From a virus, in the IMG/VR virus record IMGVR_UViG_3300050343_000041, positions 1 to 45,252 of that record: a stretch of 45,252 bases of DNA. One strand, written 5' to 3'. Of the stretch, positions 38,938-43,890 are shown piece after piece. Every line of letters starts with the position of its first letter. Within the stretch, counting starts at the first letter, position 1. The notes below the pieces were generated by a model. It searched no databases. It saw nothing but the letters and a program-made list of their open reading frames with translations, and was not told the DNA's origin. Both the position numbers and the translations under genes were made by a program.

Positions 38938-39149
38938 TTGATCTAGACAGACGTTATGAAAGTTACCTTCATAGTAAAAAATGTTTTACTATCAATGGTG
39001 CATGCGAAAATGTAATAGCATATGGATGGACCGATAATGGTTCGGACATAGATGGATATTACGTCTTGACAAACAACTATAAACTGAAGTATAATCTTCA
39101 AGAACAATGCATTAGTGTTGTACAACGCCCACTACATAAACAAAAATGA
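38934..39149 (+). CDS. Hypothetical protein, 71 aa
   Basis: MIDLDRRYESYLHSKKCFTI... then DGYYVLTNNYKLKYNLQEQCISVVQ. Likely a small beta-rich domain. It sits between the zinc-ribbon gene and talC with 4-base overlaps on both sides. No family recognised. Confidence 0.6.
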   Translation: MIDLDRRYESYLHSKKCFTINGACENVIAYGWTDNGSDIDGYYVLTNNYKLKYNLQEQCISVVQRPLHKQK

Positions 39150-39475
39150 AAATTTTTCTAGACACTGCTGACTACGAAGCAATTGCTGAACGCTATGAGA
39201 CTGGTCTAGTCGATGGTATCACTACAAATCCTACACTAGTTCGTAAATCTGGTGTAAACTACCTTGATTTTATTAGGACACTTGCTTCTGAATTTCAGTT
39301 TGAAAGTATTTCTGCTGAAGTTGAAGGTGATACTGATGTAGAAATGATTCGTAATGCCCAACAATATATTGAGGTTGGACAAAACGTTACTATTAAATTG
39401 CCTCTTACTAAAGATGGTTTATCTGCATGTAAAGTTCTTACTGGTGATGGTATTGAAACTAATGTAGGTTACTGA
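39146..39475 (+). pseudogene. talC: Transaldolase TalC, 3' half missing
   Basis: The first 107 residues of a phage-type transaldolase (about 215 aa when complete), which feeds the pentose-phosphate pathway to supply ribose and NADPH. Conserved positions: D6 (FLDTADY), TTNPT at 26-30, and K84 in TIKLPLTKDG, the Schiff-base lysine. After GDGIETNV the expected TLCFS continuation is absent. Instead GY and a stop follow, then a different protein in the same frame. No small indel restores it, so this is a real or assembly deletion of about 300 bases or more. As it stands it should be inactive. Confidence 0.8.
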
Positions 39476-39481
39476 TACTGA

Positions 39482-40536
39482 TTGGGAAAATATGATGACA
39501 ACAAAACAATTGAATCTATTGCTAAGAATGAACTCTACATGGGTTACATCTTTGGTATTATGATCTTGGGTGGATTCATCCGTGATTATAGTGCTGCATT
39601 AGAAGATGTCTATTCTTTAGCAAAGAAATACATTAAGGACAATCGTGTCCTTGTTATTATCACCTCACTGTTGGGTGGTATTCTTCCTATTCCAGGACGT
39701 GTTGCTTTATCAGCACCACTCCTAGATGGCATTGCACCAAGAGATCAAGAACGACGTTCTGATTTTGGTGTGATTGATTACCTATCAGTTCACCATTACT
39801 ACTGGTGGTCTCCACTAGAGAAGACAGTTGTTCTACCTATGGCAGTGATGGGTAGTATCCTATGGAACTTTTCTTAGGATATACTATTGTTCCTTTGATT
39901 ATTACCTTGACATACACATGGTGGTATATCTTCACTAAGGTTCCAGCTTCGTCTGTTGTCCCTAATCTAGATTATGTTCGTGAGTTCAACTGGCGTCGTG
40001 CTCTTACTGGATGGGCACCACTGATTGCTACTGTGATTCTTCTATTGAATACAGGCAAAGGTGGGGCAATCTTCTTCTTCCCTTGGTTCCTTGGAATGGC
40101 AATCTATTATTCGATTGTGTTTAAGGATTGGAAGTGGGGCAAGTGGTTGGATGGTAAGTTTGCTATCATTGCTACACTTGTTCTTGCTCTTGGTGGTGTG
40201 GTAGGATTGGTGAAAGGACCAGTCATGGAGTATCTCAACGCAGCAACGCCTGGGATGCTTATTCCTGCTTCTTTAGTCGCTATGGTTGCTGCCTACATTA
40301 TGGGTTCATCTGGTAAGTATGCTGGTATGACCTCTGCTCTTGTAGCAATCTTTGGACCTCAATACTTGGTATGGTTCCTTTGCACTGAGTATTCTGGTTA
40401 CTTAATCTCACCCGCACATAAGTGTCTCATGATCGGACAACAGTATTTCGGCACACCAATTCGCAAATACTATGCTGTGCTTTCTAGATTGTGTGTTATA
40501 CTGATTGGGTATGCGGCACTCACCTTCGTCCTATGA
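39482..40536 (+). CDS. DUF401-like permease, N-terminus missing, one frameshift
   Basis: About 350 residues of a polytopic membrane protein, roughly 8-9 hydrophobic segments. Conserved blocks match the DUF401/ion-transporter superfamily pattern as I recall it: ILPIPGRVALSAPLLD, then DYLSVHHYYWWSPLEKT, and near the end FGPQYLVWFLCTEYSGYLISPAHKCLMIGQQYF. The first part (39482-39877) and second (39862-40536) join if one T is added to the T run at 39871-39874. Family members are about 400 aa, so some 50 N-terminal residues are lacking at the talC junction. It would transport an organic anion; substrate unknown. It overlaps the next phage gene by ATGA, showing it is integrated in the phage gene order. 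Confidence 0.6.
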
Positions 40537-40784: not shown

Positions 40785-41090
40785 ATGAGCGTAAGATCAC
40801 AAGTTCAAGCTGCTGAAGAAGCACTCCGTCAAGCACTGATTAACGCTCTTGCTGAGGGAGATGAATATTGTTTGTCCGAACTGTTTACTCAGTATCAAGC
40901 AATCAGTAATCTGAATAAAAAAGTAAATGATATAACTCATTCTGCTTATGATTCAAATTACAATTTCAATCTGTCGTCTGATTATCTCCCTCGTCCTGGA
41001 GGAGATTTAGATAATTTTGATAATGTTATTGATTTTGGTGGTAATATTACTATTGGAAACTCTAGTGATGATACTATCACCTTCAGTTAG
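40785..41090 (+). CDS. Hypothetical protein, 101 aa
   Basis: N-terminal half helical (VRSQVQAAEEALRQALINALAEG, then YQAISNLNKKVNDI), C-terminal half Asn/Asp-rich and probably extended (DNFDNVIDFGGNITIGNSSDD). An AGAGG ribosome-binding site lies 5 bases before the ATG. Its stop is 10 bases before the structured RNA begins. Possibly virion-associated by composition; unknown. Confidence 0.6.
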   Translation: MSVRSQVQAAEEALRQALINALAEGDEYCLSELFTQYQAISNLNKKVNDITHSAYDSNYNFNLSSDYLPRPGGDLDNFDNVIDFGGNITIGNSSDDTITFS

Positions 41091-41099
41091 TCTCGGTAG

Positions 41100-41278
41100 G
41101 ACTATAAACTAGCCCTGGTGCGGGTGATTACGTTGCCGCTCAGTTTCTTACTTCTGATTAAAAAGTAAGTGGTGGTGCCAAATCCCCTTCCGTGTGGCTG
41201 TTTTCTTGTTTAGCAGTTAAAATAATAAAACAAGTGGCGTGCATGTGCCTAGTAGGGGATTGACCTCCCTCTTTTTTT
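41100..41278 (+). ncRNA. Structured non-coding RNA with terminator-like 3' end
   Basis: A gene-free 188-base gap with dense perfect pairings: GCGG/CCGC (41120-41123 with 41136-41139), CTTACTT/AAGTAAG (41147-41153 with 41163-41169), CTTGTTT/AAACAAG (41205-41211 with 41228-41234), GGC/GCC (41236-41238 with 41247-41249), and a long-range 8-bp AATCCCCT/AGGGGATT (41181-41188 with 41254-41261). The last helix competes with a hairpin AGGGG/TCCCT (41254-41258 with 41266-41270) followed by T7 (41272-41278). This looks like an antiterminator/terminator switch before tRNA-Gly and an oxygenase gene, or a stable small RNA. The manA and wcaG motifs of cyanophages are candidates; identity unresolved. Confidence 0.6.
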
Positions 41279-41351
41279 GCGGATGTAGTTCAGCGGTAGA
41301 ACGCTATCCTTCCAAGTTAGATGTCGTCGGTTCAAGTCCGATCATCCCGCT
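41279..41351 (+). tRNA. tRNA-Gly (anticodon TCC), one extra C in the acceptor
   Basis: D arm and anticodon arm CTATC-CTTCCAA-GTTAG and T arm GTCGG-TTCAAGT-CCGAT are normal. The 5' acceptor GCGGATG would pair perfectly with CATCCGC, but the sequence has CATCCCGC, one C too many in a homopolymer. This is probably a sequencing indel. Starts directly after the T run of the upstream RNA. Confidence 0.88.
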
Positions 41352-41366
41352 TTTTAATATATTGAT

Positions 41367-41819
41367 ATGAAGATAGGAGATATACAAGCACATAAGTATC
41401 CAGAAGCAGCAGATATCAATTCTGTTCTCCATAAAATTATATGTGACAACAGTGTTACCAGTGATAAGGGAGCACTAATGACACAGTGGGACTGTTTTAA
41501 TATCAAAGAATTTAATGTTCTTGCTGATTATGCAAAGAGTTTACTTGATAAACCAACCAAGTTAGTTGATCTCTGGGGTCAAGTATATAACGAGGGACAT
41601 TACCAAACTTTTCATAATCATATACACAATGACTGGTCTTTTGTTTACTATGTTAATACACCACCAGGGTCATCTCCAATTGTATTCAGGGGAATGAGCA
41701 AGAGGATTAAACCTGTTGCTGGTATGATGCTATTATTTCCTGGGTATGTGGATCACTATGTTCCTCCTAATAAAGGTGTTGGACGTAGTATAGTAGCAGG
41801 CAATCTTGTATATTCATAA
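41367..41819 (+). CDS. 2OG-Fe(II) oxygenase-like protein, 150 aa
   Basis: A compact dioxygenase of the type abundant in cyanophages. HNHIHNDWSFVYYVNTPPGSSPIVF (83-107, in parts) supplies H87-x-D89; FPGYVDHYVPPN gives distal H130; R140 in GRSIVAGN would bind 2-oxoglutarate. The HxD...H set is complete, so it is probably active. Substrate unknown. Lies 15 bases after tRNA-Gly, and a late promoter overlaps its stop. Confidence 0.78.
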   Translation: MKIGDIQAHKYPEAADINSVLHKIICDNSVTSDKGALMTQWDCFNIKEFNVLADYAKSLLDKPTKLVDLWGQVYNEGHYQTFHNHIHNDWSFVYYVNTPPGSSPIVFRGMSKRIKPVAGMMLLFPGYVDHYVPPNKGVGRSIVAGNLVYS

Positions 41820-41822
41820 ATA
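41816..41822 (+). promoter_or_regulatory. Putative late promoter ATAAATA
   Basis: ATAAATA overlapping the oxygenase stop, 38 bases before the fibre-like gene at 41860. Confidence 0.6.
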
Positions 41823-41859
41823 CTTCTAGCTTAGAAATAGTGTCTTCAGGACTGGAAGT

Positions 41860-43890
41860 ATGTCAAAAATTCTTGCAAATGAAATTGCTAATTATAATGA
41901 TGATTCTCCTATCGATATTAAGGAGGGTCTTAATATACCTGCAGGAAAACCACTGCAAGCAGCAGGATCTAGTGGTTCTTCTGGTCAAGTCCTTACGACA
42001 ACAGGAACTACTGTTGGGTGGGTAACACCATTTGATGGTGATTATAATACTTTACTTAATAGACCTAGTATTCCTGCAGCGCAGGTAAATTCTGATTGGA
42101 ATGCTAGTGGTGGTGCTGCAGTTATCTTAAATAAACCAGCAGTACCTCCTTTACCTAGTATTACAACAGCGTCTGCAGGTAGTGCTGCATTAGCATACAA
42201 TTCAGGTAACGGTCAATTTACTTTTACTCCTCCTGATTTATCTTCCTATGCAACAGAGACATGGGTTGAAAATAAAGGATACCTCACAACATATACAGAA
42301 ACTGATCCTGTATTTGCTGCTTCCGATGCAGCTGCTGTAACTTCTGCTAGTATTGCCAACTGGGATACCGCATATGGTTGGGGTAATCATGCTTCAGCAG
42401 GATATCTGACAACAGAAGCAGATACATTTCAGTCGGTTGTAGACAGAGGAAATACTTGTACAAGTCCTGTATACATTACAAATAAATTATATTTCTCAAA
42501 TAACTTTGCTACCTTAACAGATCTTCAGGCAGTTGATGCAACTACCTATCATGGTATGTTCGCTCACGTTCATGCTGAAGGTCATGGATACTTTGCACAT
42601 AGTGGTGGATGGGTACAATTATTAGATACAGCATCTTCAACTGGAGATTTGTTCGATGTAGATCTTTCTGTTGCTCCTGTTAATGGTCAAGTTCTTAAGT
42701 GGAACGGAACTGCTTGGGCACCAGCAAATGATCTCACAGGTGGTGGTGGTGGAGGTTTAGCACTAACTGATTTATCGGTACAATCACTAACACCATCTGG
42801 CGGTGGATCTTTAACATACAATGATGGCAGTGGTGTATTCTCTTACACTGCACCTGATTTATCTGGGTATCTTACATCTATTGGAGATGCAATTCAAGAT
42901 GTTGACTTCATAACCAATGGTTTGATGAAGAGAACTGCTGCTGGAACTTACACATCTACCACTGATAATTCTGGTAACTGGAACGCAGCATTTGGTTGGG
43001 GTAATCATGCAGTAGAGGGTTATCTAACACAATTACCAAACCACGGACTCAATAGTCACACTGGTGTAACTCTTAGTGGTGAGTCAGTAGGACAATTACT
43101 ACAATACAATGGTACTGCATGGGTAAACTGGACACCTTCTTACATTAGTTCTTATTCTGAAACTGATACACTTGCTACTGTAACAGGTAGAGGTGCTACA
43201 ACCAATGATAATATTACACTGGGTGATGCTTCAAACCAACCAGAGTTTAACTTGTCTGTTGGCGTATCTTCTGGTAGTGTTAACTACCTAAAAATATTTG
43301 GTGGAAGTAATGAAGTATACTTTAGAAACACCACTGGCACTGGTGTCGGTGGAAGTATCAATATTCAGGGTCGTTCTGGTGTGTCACTTTGGCAAGACAC
43401 TGGTAATTTAGGTCTTAGTGTTGATTCTGATTGCGCTGTAAATCTATTCTATCAAACCTCATTAAAATTAAAAACCACAACTACTGGTGTAACAATCACA
43501 GGTGCTCTTACTGCTGGTGGTCTGACTTATCCAACTACCAACGGCACAAGTGGTGATGTTCTTACCAGTGATGGTGCAGGTAATGTCACCTGGGCTGCTT
43601 CTACTGGTGGCGGTGGTGCTAGTGTTACTATCTCTGACACACCACCTGCTGCAACCGCTGGTGATTTATGGTGGGAGAGTGATACTGGTCGTCTAAAGAT
43701 TTACTATCAGGATACTGATACAACACAGTGGGTTGATACAACTCCTCCACTATCTTCGTTGGTATCTTCTGATATTCCTGGATCTGCAACTGCAACTGGA
43801 ACAGCAGGTGCAATTAGATTTGATAGTGGTTATGTTTATATCTGTGTTGCTACTAATACATGGAAGAGAGCAGCACTTACAACATGGTAA
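41860..43890 (+). CDS. Tail-fibre-like virion protein, 676 aa
   Basis: A long Ser/Thr/Gly/Asn-rich beta protein. The N-terminus (MSKILANEIANYNDDSPIDI, GLNIPAGKPLQAAGSSGSSG) is typical of cyanophage fibre or structural proteins. Repeats GWGNHASAGYL near residue 173 and GWGNHAVEGYL near 377, and SYATETW/PDLSGYLTS blocks, indicate a repetitive shaft. The region 540-580 has the module TAGGLTYP...VLTSDGAGNVTWAA, also present in the next gene. It likely contributes to host recognition. It has its own late promoter. Confidence 0.78.
   Translation: MSKILANEIANYNDDSPIDIKEGLNIPAGKPLQAAGSSGSSGQVLTTTGTTVGWVTPFDGDYNTLLNRPSIPAAQVNSDWNASGGAAVILNKPAVPPLPSITTASAGSAALAYNSGNGQFTFTPPDLSSYATETWVENKGYLTTYTETDPVFAASDAAAVTSASIANWDTAYGWGNHASAGYLTTEADTFQSVVDRGNTCTSPVYITNKLYFSNNFATLTDLQAVDATTYHGMFAHVHAEGHGYFAHSGGWVQLLDTASSTGDLFDVDLSVAPVNGQVLKWNGTAWAPANDLTGGGGGGLALTDLSVQSLTPSGGGSLTYNDGSGVFSYTAPDLSGYLTSIGDAIQDVDFITNGLMKRTAAGTYTSTTDNSGNWNAAFGWGNHAVEGYLTQLPNHGLNSHTGVTLSGESVGQLLQYNGTAWVNWTPSYISSYSETDTLATVTGRGATTNDNITLGDASNQPEFNLSVGVSSGSVNYLKIFGGSNEVYFRNTTGTGVGGSINIQGRSGVSLWQDTGNLGLSVDSDCAVNLFYQTSLKLKTTTTGVTITGALTAGGLTYPTTNGTSGDVLTSDGAGNVTWAASTGGGGASVTISDTPPAATAGDLWWESDTGRLKIYYQDTDTTQWVDTTPPLSSLVSSDIPGSATATGTAGAIRFDSGYVYICVATNTWKRAALTTW

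What the first reader, a model, noticed from the sequence alone, without database searches (positions are those of the whole stretch)
41100..41366. Riboswitch-like RNA with competing antiterminator and terminator before tRNA-Gly and an oxygenase
Seen: at least five perfect helices in 180 bases. The 3' strand of the long-range AATCCCCT/AGGGGATT helix is also the 5' arm of a short hairpin followed by T7, so the two folds exclude each other. It could sense a metabolite and control the downstream transcript, or be a stable phage small RNA. Structured RNAs of the manA and wcaG classes are known from cyanophages; I cannot tell whether this is one of them.
Basis: partly seen in the sequence, partly recalled or inferred. 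Interest (0 to 1): 0.7.

Follow-up and report, generated by a model that had tools for sequence, protein, structure and literature searches.

The report
Modular wcaG pseudoknot RNA in cyanophages

Summary
The window is an IMG/VR cyanophage fragment. Bases 41086-41183 match Rfam wcaG (RF01761) at 52.4 bits, above its cut-off of 42. The Rfam model covers only part of the element. Relatives show a modular array from about 41087 to 41278: a leader hairpin, then tandem H-type pseudoknots (unit B, and a divergent unit C that Rfam misses), then a short hairpin that abuts tRNA-Gly(UCC). Covariation supports both pseudoknots and the closing hairpin. The window itself has three compensatory pair changes in unit B relative to S-CAM4.

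A terminator/antiterminator switch is therefore not supported. The oxygenase is absent from this place in all relatives examined: the tRNA is usually followed directly by a late promoter and the tail fibre gene.

Arrays occur once per genome and start at an upstream stop codon. They end mostly in a hairpin, which is a terminator, a combined terminator/promoter, or a hairpin before a tRNA. I favour a structured 3'-terminal or non-coding RNA domain over a riboswitch. The ligand, partner and function remain unknown. This is a new variant of a known kind.

The parts
40785..41090 (+). upstream ORF, 101 aa, PHROG 604 (unknown function); its stop codon TAG (41088-41090) lies inside the leader hairpin
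   Evidence: in 45 of 50 arrays with a leader and an upstream ORF the ORF stop lies within about 20 nt of the leader start
41088..41104 (+). leader hairpin TAGTC-TCGGTAG-GACTA
   Evidence: 88 distinct leader hairpins in relatives; stem varies with compensation (AGTC/GACT, CGTC/GACG, AGAC/GTCT, CGTG/CACG); loop nt 2 and a tail nt are C-G 59 or U-A 29 with no exception
41086..41183 (+). match to Rfam RF01761 wcaG
   Evidence: 52.4 bits, gathering 42, E 5e-7 over the window
41116..41172 (+). unit B: TGGTGCGG, small hairpin, then H-type pseudoknot. S1 41140-41143/41154-41157 (UCAG/CUGA), L1 UUU 41144-41146, S2 41147-41153/41163-41169, L3 UUAAA, then UGG
   Evidence: 65 relatives: 99.4% of cells paired, 7 of 11 pairs with changes on both sides, 0 of 500 shuffles; 58.9 bits to model R1, which was built from an alignment that includes it
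41173..41237 (+). unit C: divergent second pseudoknot. S1 41197-41200/41214-41217 (GCUG/CAGU), S2 41205-41211/41228-41234, then UGG
   Evidence: weak match to wcaG (14.5 bits) and to model R1 (15.5 bits, E 0.004); S1 covaries (UA/CG/AU) in 31 relatives
41238..41247 (+). closing motif CGTGCATGTG (following UGG), nearly invariant in the tRNA class
   Evidence: alignment A2
41255..41270 (+). closing hairpin GGGGA-TTGACC-TCCCT
   Evidence: covaries in 31 relatives, 4 of 5 pairs with changes on both sides
41272..41278 (+). T7 run; makes the closing hairpin terminator-like in this phage and in a minority of tRNA-linked relatives
41279..41350 (+). tRNA-Gly(TCC)
   Evidence: ARAGORN and Rfam; tRNAs of several kinds follow arrays, mostly 37-45 nt after the last pseudoknot

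Best explanation
The element is a wcaG-class RNA built as a modular array: leader hairpin, H-type pseudoknot B, H-type pseudoknot C, closing hairpin. It fills the gap between the stop codon of the preceding phage gene and tRNA-Gly. Shown by comparison: the class, the modules, the two pseudoknots and the closing hairpin. Inferred: it is transcribed together with the upstream gene. Its 3' end is set right behind the closing hairpin, either by termination at a U-run (this phage, a minority of tRNA-linked relatives and most tRNA-free relatives) or by tRNA excision (the remaining tRNA-linked relatives). The pseudoknot array then serves as a stable 3'-terminal or free RNA domain that marks the boundary between a conserved upstream unit and an exchangeable downstream cassette. 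It is not a ligand-driven switch for the oxygenase. Whether its final activity is protection of the upstream mRNA or action as a free RNA is not decided.
For: RF01761 match above cut-off. Tandem modules in named cyanophages and viral contigs. S1 and S2 pseudoknot covariation, 0 of 500 shuffles. In an unbiased selection on S2+UUU only, the inner three S1 pairs form in 64% of 162 distinct units against 23% with shuffled partners, maximum 33% in 2000 shuffles. The window carries three compensatory S1 pair changes relative to S-CAM4, whose DNA is 92% identical here. Unit C S1 and closing hairpin covary. Array starts at the upstream stop codon. 77 of 100 arrays are followed by a GC-rich hairpin by a strict test that misses some, the window included, against about 6% in controls. 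In 29 of 65 tRNA-free arrays that hairpin is a terminator overlapped by a promoter (control 1%), so the downstream transcript starts after the RNA. tRNA follows at a near-constant distance. Upstream genes fall in fewer families (17 clusters of 90) than downstream genes (31 of 96). One array per genome in the phage genomes searched.
Against: No transcript data were seen, so 5' and 3' ends are inferred. In at least 11 arrays a gene begins directly after the last unit without a hairpin (for example Syn1), which places the RNA in a 5' UTR there. Syn1 and two relatives have a TTGACA-17-TATAAT promoter, complete (12 of 12) in the two that were scored, ending 5-6 nt before the leader, so the RNA can also start independently. 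The strong primary-sequence conservation (27 invariant columns in unit B) suggests a specific partner, more than a generic 3' cap needs.
Confidence: 0.45

Rival explanations
1. Tandem riboswitch: units B and C are aptamers for a metabolite, and ligand binding controls termination or read-through into tRNA-Gly and downstream genes. This is the published suggestion for wcaG and the reader's model.
For: Weinberg 2010 lists wcaG as a probable cis-regulator and possible riboswitch (PMC2864571). Compact H-type pseudoknots with U-rich L1 and A-rich L3 resemble known aptamers (own knowledge). High sequence conservation. Terminators follow many arrays. Sugar-nucleotide genes often lie downstream.
Against: No covarying alternative helix, although own against swapped duplexes differ slightly in tRNA-free arrays (-12.85 against -12.34, 2.5% of swaps as strong). 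Downstream genes are diverse (31 clusters of 96). In 29 of 65 tRNA-free arrays the downstream promoter lies after the RNA.
Confidence: 0.2
2. Free trans-acting phage RNA: the array is released as a stable RNA that binds a host or phage protein or RNA during infection.
For: One locus per genome. Leader hairpin can lie just behind a complete promoter. Discrete closing hairpin. Changing neighbours. Perfect leader loop-tail covariation and conserved unpaired bases.
Against: Only about 3 arrays have a convincing own promoter. No expression data. No target sought in host genomes.
Confidence: 0.2
3. Cis-acting processive antitermination RNA, working like put of phage HK022 or EAR: the array acts on RNA polymerase so that it reads through the hairpin into the tRNA and a long downstream unit.
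For: Array lies directly before a terminator-like hairpin, and downstream units include polysaccharide and tail fibre genes.
Against: tRNA-linked relatives mostly lack a U-run. In 18 of 36 tRNA-linked arrays a late-promoter-like motif follows the tRNA, and in many tRNA-free arrays a promoter follows, so read-through is not needed. Nothing here tests it directly.
Confidence: 0.1
4. Recombination anchor: a conserved repeat-rich boundary that lets phages exchange host-range cassettes, as proposed for PeSLs in T4-like phages.
For: Conserved array next to variable tail fibre and sugar genes. Modules gained or lost between phages. PeSL-like promoter/terminator hairpins in 29 of 65 tRNA-free arrays.
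Against: Compensatory changes in pseudoknots show selection on RNA structure, not on DNA identity. PMC4503421 judged PeSLs unlikely in S-PM2 acquisition.
Confidence: 0.05

Closest known systems
wcaG RNA (Rfam RF01761; Weinberg et al. 2010, PMC2864571)
   Same: Unit B and its 3' flank match above the curated cut-off; same hosts (cyanophages, marine).
   Different: The Rfam model covers the end of one unit plus unit B. Here the first wcaG hairpin is replaced by a leader hairpin, a second divergent pseudoknot unit follows, and the array ends before a tRNA rather than before an exopolysaccharide gene. Whether the published figure draws the S1 pseudoknot could not be seen.
STAXI motif (RF01728)
   Same: Pseudoknot repeated two or three times in tandem (paper text); function unknown.
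   Different: No Rfam match to it here; host range, sequence and neighbours differ.
PeSL promoter/stem-loop elements of T4-like phages (Arbiol 2010, Comeau 2014, cited in PMC4503421)
   Same: In many tRNA-free arrays the closing hairpin is a terminator overlapped by a promoter.
   Different: In the window no promoter overlaps the hairpin; PeSLs are not described with pseudoknot arrays (own knowledge; the original papers were not read).
H-type pseudoknot aptamers (preQ1-I, SAM-II)
   Same: Topology, U-rich L1 and A-rich L3 (own knowledge).
   Different: No Rfam match at E up to 5; no ligand known.

Membership tests
wcaG RNA RF01761 | bit score at or above the curated gathering score | tested here: met
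   52.4 against 42 bits
wcaG RNA RF01761 | 3' hairpin of the model (S2 of unit B) | tested here: met
   no non-standard pair in that helix; covaries in 65 relatives
wcaG RNA RF01761 | middle hairpin of the model | tested here: inconclusive
   2 of 5 pairs non-standard in the Rfam register; the window type GGTGA/TTGCC could pair in a shifted register
wcaG RNA RF01761 | first hairpin of the model, 7 bp | tested here: not met
   non-standard pairs in that helix; the leader hairpin takes its place, so this is a variant architecture
wcaG RNA RF01761 | position in the potential 5' UTR of exopolysaccharide or high-light genes | tested here: not met
   followed by tRNA-Gly, then a 2OG oxygenase and a tail fibre gene
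manA RNA RF01745 | match to the family model | tested here: not met
   not among matches at gathering score or at E up to 5
transcription-attenuating riboswitch | mutually exclusive antiterminator and terminator conserved by covariation | tested here: not met
   terminator hairpin covaries, alternative helix does not
transcription-attenuating riboswitch | specific ligand binding | not testable with these tools
   needs in-line probing
intrinsic terminator | GC-rich hairpin followed by a U-run | tested here: met
   41255-41278 in the window; U-run not found in most tRNA-linked relatives
PeSL | sigma-70 type promoter overlapping the stem-loop | tested here: not met
   none over the window hairpin; present in 29 of 65 tRNA-free relatives
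STAXI RF01728 | match to the family model | tested here: not met
   no match at gathering score or at E up to 5

The most novel reading that the evidence does not exclude
wcaG is not a 5'-UTR riboswitch class but a modular, tandem-pseudoknot non-coding RNA of marine T4-like cyanophages, present once per genome, whose 3' end is made either by a terminator fused to the next gene's promoter or by tRNA processing. Modules are gained and lost between related phages.
Probability: 0.35. Interest if true: 0.7.

Novelty: new variant of a known kind. Interest (0 to 1): 0.5.

Why it matters
wcaG has had no assigned function since 2010 and only a handful of papers mention it. Showing that it is a repeated, strongly covarying pseudoknot module with defined 3' boundaries, and that the downstream promoter often lies after it, changes which experiment to do first: look for a discrete RNA and its partner before screening ligands for a leader switch. 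The units, S1/S2 pairs and natural compensatory variants (UCAG/CUGA here, AGAG/CUCU in S-RIM8) give ready mutants to test.

Tried and rejected
manA: no match. Antiterminator helix as a conserved switch: rejected on covariation and swap tests; a weak signal in tRNA-free arrays (2.5% of swaps as strong) is not enough. Window structure judged by folding energy alone: not significant. Occurrence in cellular genomes: one pattern hit in Microbulbifer lies in sequence that reads as a protein-coding gene without the pseudoknot, taken as a chance match. The pattern GTGGCGTGCATGTG alone gives many chance matches, which were removed. A third viral scan had a gap set too narrow and returned one locus. Published transcript data for this RNA: none found in the held library. 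PeSL paper PMC4122927 was not held.

Full report
Identity. The window is a 45,252-base virus record with T4-like cyanophage genes. Rfam 15 gives wcaG (RF01761) at 41086-41183 with 52.4 bits against a cut-off of 42, and nothing else but tRNAs above cut-off. A second, sub-threshold wcaG half lies at 41188-41248 (14.5 bits).

Observation. As a single sequence this is not beyond chance (z -0.30; inverted repeats P 0.07-0.34). Only relatives decide.

Relatives. BLAST found 66 phage records, all cyanophages. Eighteen annotated loci and viral contigs show the same array, in most of the annotated loci directly upstream of tRNA-Gly(TCC). The arrays are modular: leader hairpin(s) AGUC-nYGGnnn-GACU, then units that each contain an H-type pseudoknot, then UGGCG(A/U)GC and a hairpin. 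The window has leader+B+C; S-RSM4, S-WAM2, S-H9-1 and Sf-CH11 have leader+A+B+C; S-RIM44 has leader+C. In the phage genomes searched there is one array each (18 genomes with RF01761, 12 with model R1). A scan of 84,980 cellular genomes gave one match, which looks like a coding-sequence coincidence.

Pseudoknots. Unit B: S1 (CUGG/CCAG in most), L1 UUU, S2 of 7 bp, L3 A-rich, then UGG. On 65 distinct sequences 99.4% of cells pair, 7 of 11 pairs show changes on both sides, and none of 500 shuffles reaches any of the five measures; sliding the partner by one column drops pairing to 54-57%. The window's own S1 is UCAG/CUGA where S-CAM4 (92% identical DNA) has CUGG/CCAG: three of four pairs are exchanged with compensation, and L046 carries an intermediate UCAG/CUGG. 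Selecting units on S2 and UUU alone, without asking for S1, the inner three S1 pairs form in 64% of 162 distinct units against 23% expected (maximum 33% in 2000 shuffles). Unit C keeps S1 by compensation (UA/CG/AU) with four exceptions in 31 at one pair. The leader shows loop nt 2 and a tail nt as C-G in 59 and U-A in 29 of 88 distinct hairpins, no exception. These tests were written for this question and relatedness is not fully controlled, but changes within near-identical phages and between units make inheritance alone a poor account.

Terminator and antiterminator. The closing hairpin covaries (4 of 5 pairs with double changes). Duplex strength with the own hairpin equals that with swapped hairpins. 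A U-run follows the hairpin in 10-12 of about 35 tRNA-linked arrays.

Context. The upstream ORF stop codon lies at the leader (within about 20 nt in 45 of 50). In arrays not followed by a tRNA, 44 of 65 have a terminator, and in 29 a promoter overlaps it (TTGACA or TTGCAT in the hairpin, TATAAT after the U-run; control 1%), so the downstream gene is transcribed from a start after the RNA. tRNAs (Gly, Leu, Met, Ile, Pro) follow 39 of 102 arrays against 8% of random places in the same loci, mostly 37-45 nt after the last pseudoknot. At least 11 arrays run straight into a gene. Downstream genes fall into 31 clusters (the largest being sugar-nucleotide enzymes and tail fibres), upstream genes into 17. 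In the window the 2OG-Fe(II) oxygenase (41367-41819; PF13759) sits between the tRNA and a late-promoter-like ATAAATA plus tail fibre leader (41815-41844) that in many relatives follows the tRNA directly. Its best phage homologues are about 31-37% identical and none lies in the annotated neighbourhoods read here. Distant oxygenases do follow a few other arrays (L009, L142, L145), so a weak link is not excluded.

Mechanism. Shown by comparison: class, modules, pseudoknots, closing hairpin, its place between a stop codon and a 3' boundary. Inferred: co-transcription with the upstream gene, 3' end at the hairpin by termination or tRNA excision, and a role as a stable 3'-terminal or free RNA. A riboswitch remains possible but its switching part finds no support. 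Three loci (Syn1 L009, S-RIM44 L014, contig L062) have a TTGACA-17-TATAAT promoter ending 5-6 nt before the leader, which suggests that the RNA can be an independent transcript.

Known kinds. wcaG was described in 2010 as a probable cis-regulator and possible riboswitch linked to exopolysaccharide and high-light genes; later papers only annotate it. The nearest architectural analogue is STAXI, a tandem pseudoknot motif of unknown function. I file the feature as a variant of wcaG: the curated score is met, but the model's first hairpin is replaced and the gene context differs. Whether the published figure already draws the S1 pseudoknot I could not check.

Noticed in passing
41815-41862: Late-promoter-like CATAAATA followed by a conserved tail fibre 5' leader (ATACTTCTAGCTTAGAAATAGTGTCTTCAGGACTGGAAGTATG) whose ends are complementary across the start codon; near-identical in S-CAM4, ACG-2014e and S-RSM4 relatives. 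It could be a second structured element that controls translation of the tail fibre.
   Followed up: partly
39146-40536: Transaldolase is cut to 109 aa (first half of PHROG 440), and the next gene (PHROG 14035, 345 positions) is split over two ORFs 39482-39877 and 39862-40536. S-CAM4 has an intact talC, an antitoxin-like gene and one intact ORF here. Deletion plus frameshift, or a sequencing error.
   Followed up: no
39066-39095: Promoter-like TTGACA-18-TATAAT with 12 of 12 matches inside the end of a small ORF, upstream of the shortened transaldolase.
   Followed up: no
L014, L009 and L062, just upstream of the leader hairpin: TTGACA-17-TATAAT promoter ends 5-6 nt before the first leader base, in Syn1 and S-RIM44 within or at the end of the tryptophan halogenase gene; suggests an independently transcribed RNA in these phages.
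   Followed up: partly
L139, L182 and other tRNA-free arrays: Terminator hairpin with the -35 box inside it and TATAAT right after the U-run, directly in front of sugar-nucleotide genes (29 of 65 tRNA-free arrays). Resembles PeSL elements.
   Followed up: partly
leader hairpins of all arrays (for example 41089-41114): Second loop base and a base in the A-rich tail covary perfectly (C-G 59, U-A 29, no exception), a lone pair that suggests a tertiary fold of the leader.
   Followed up: partly
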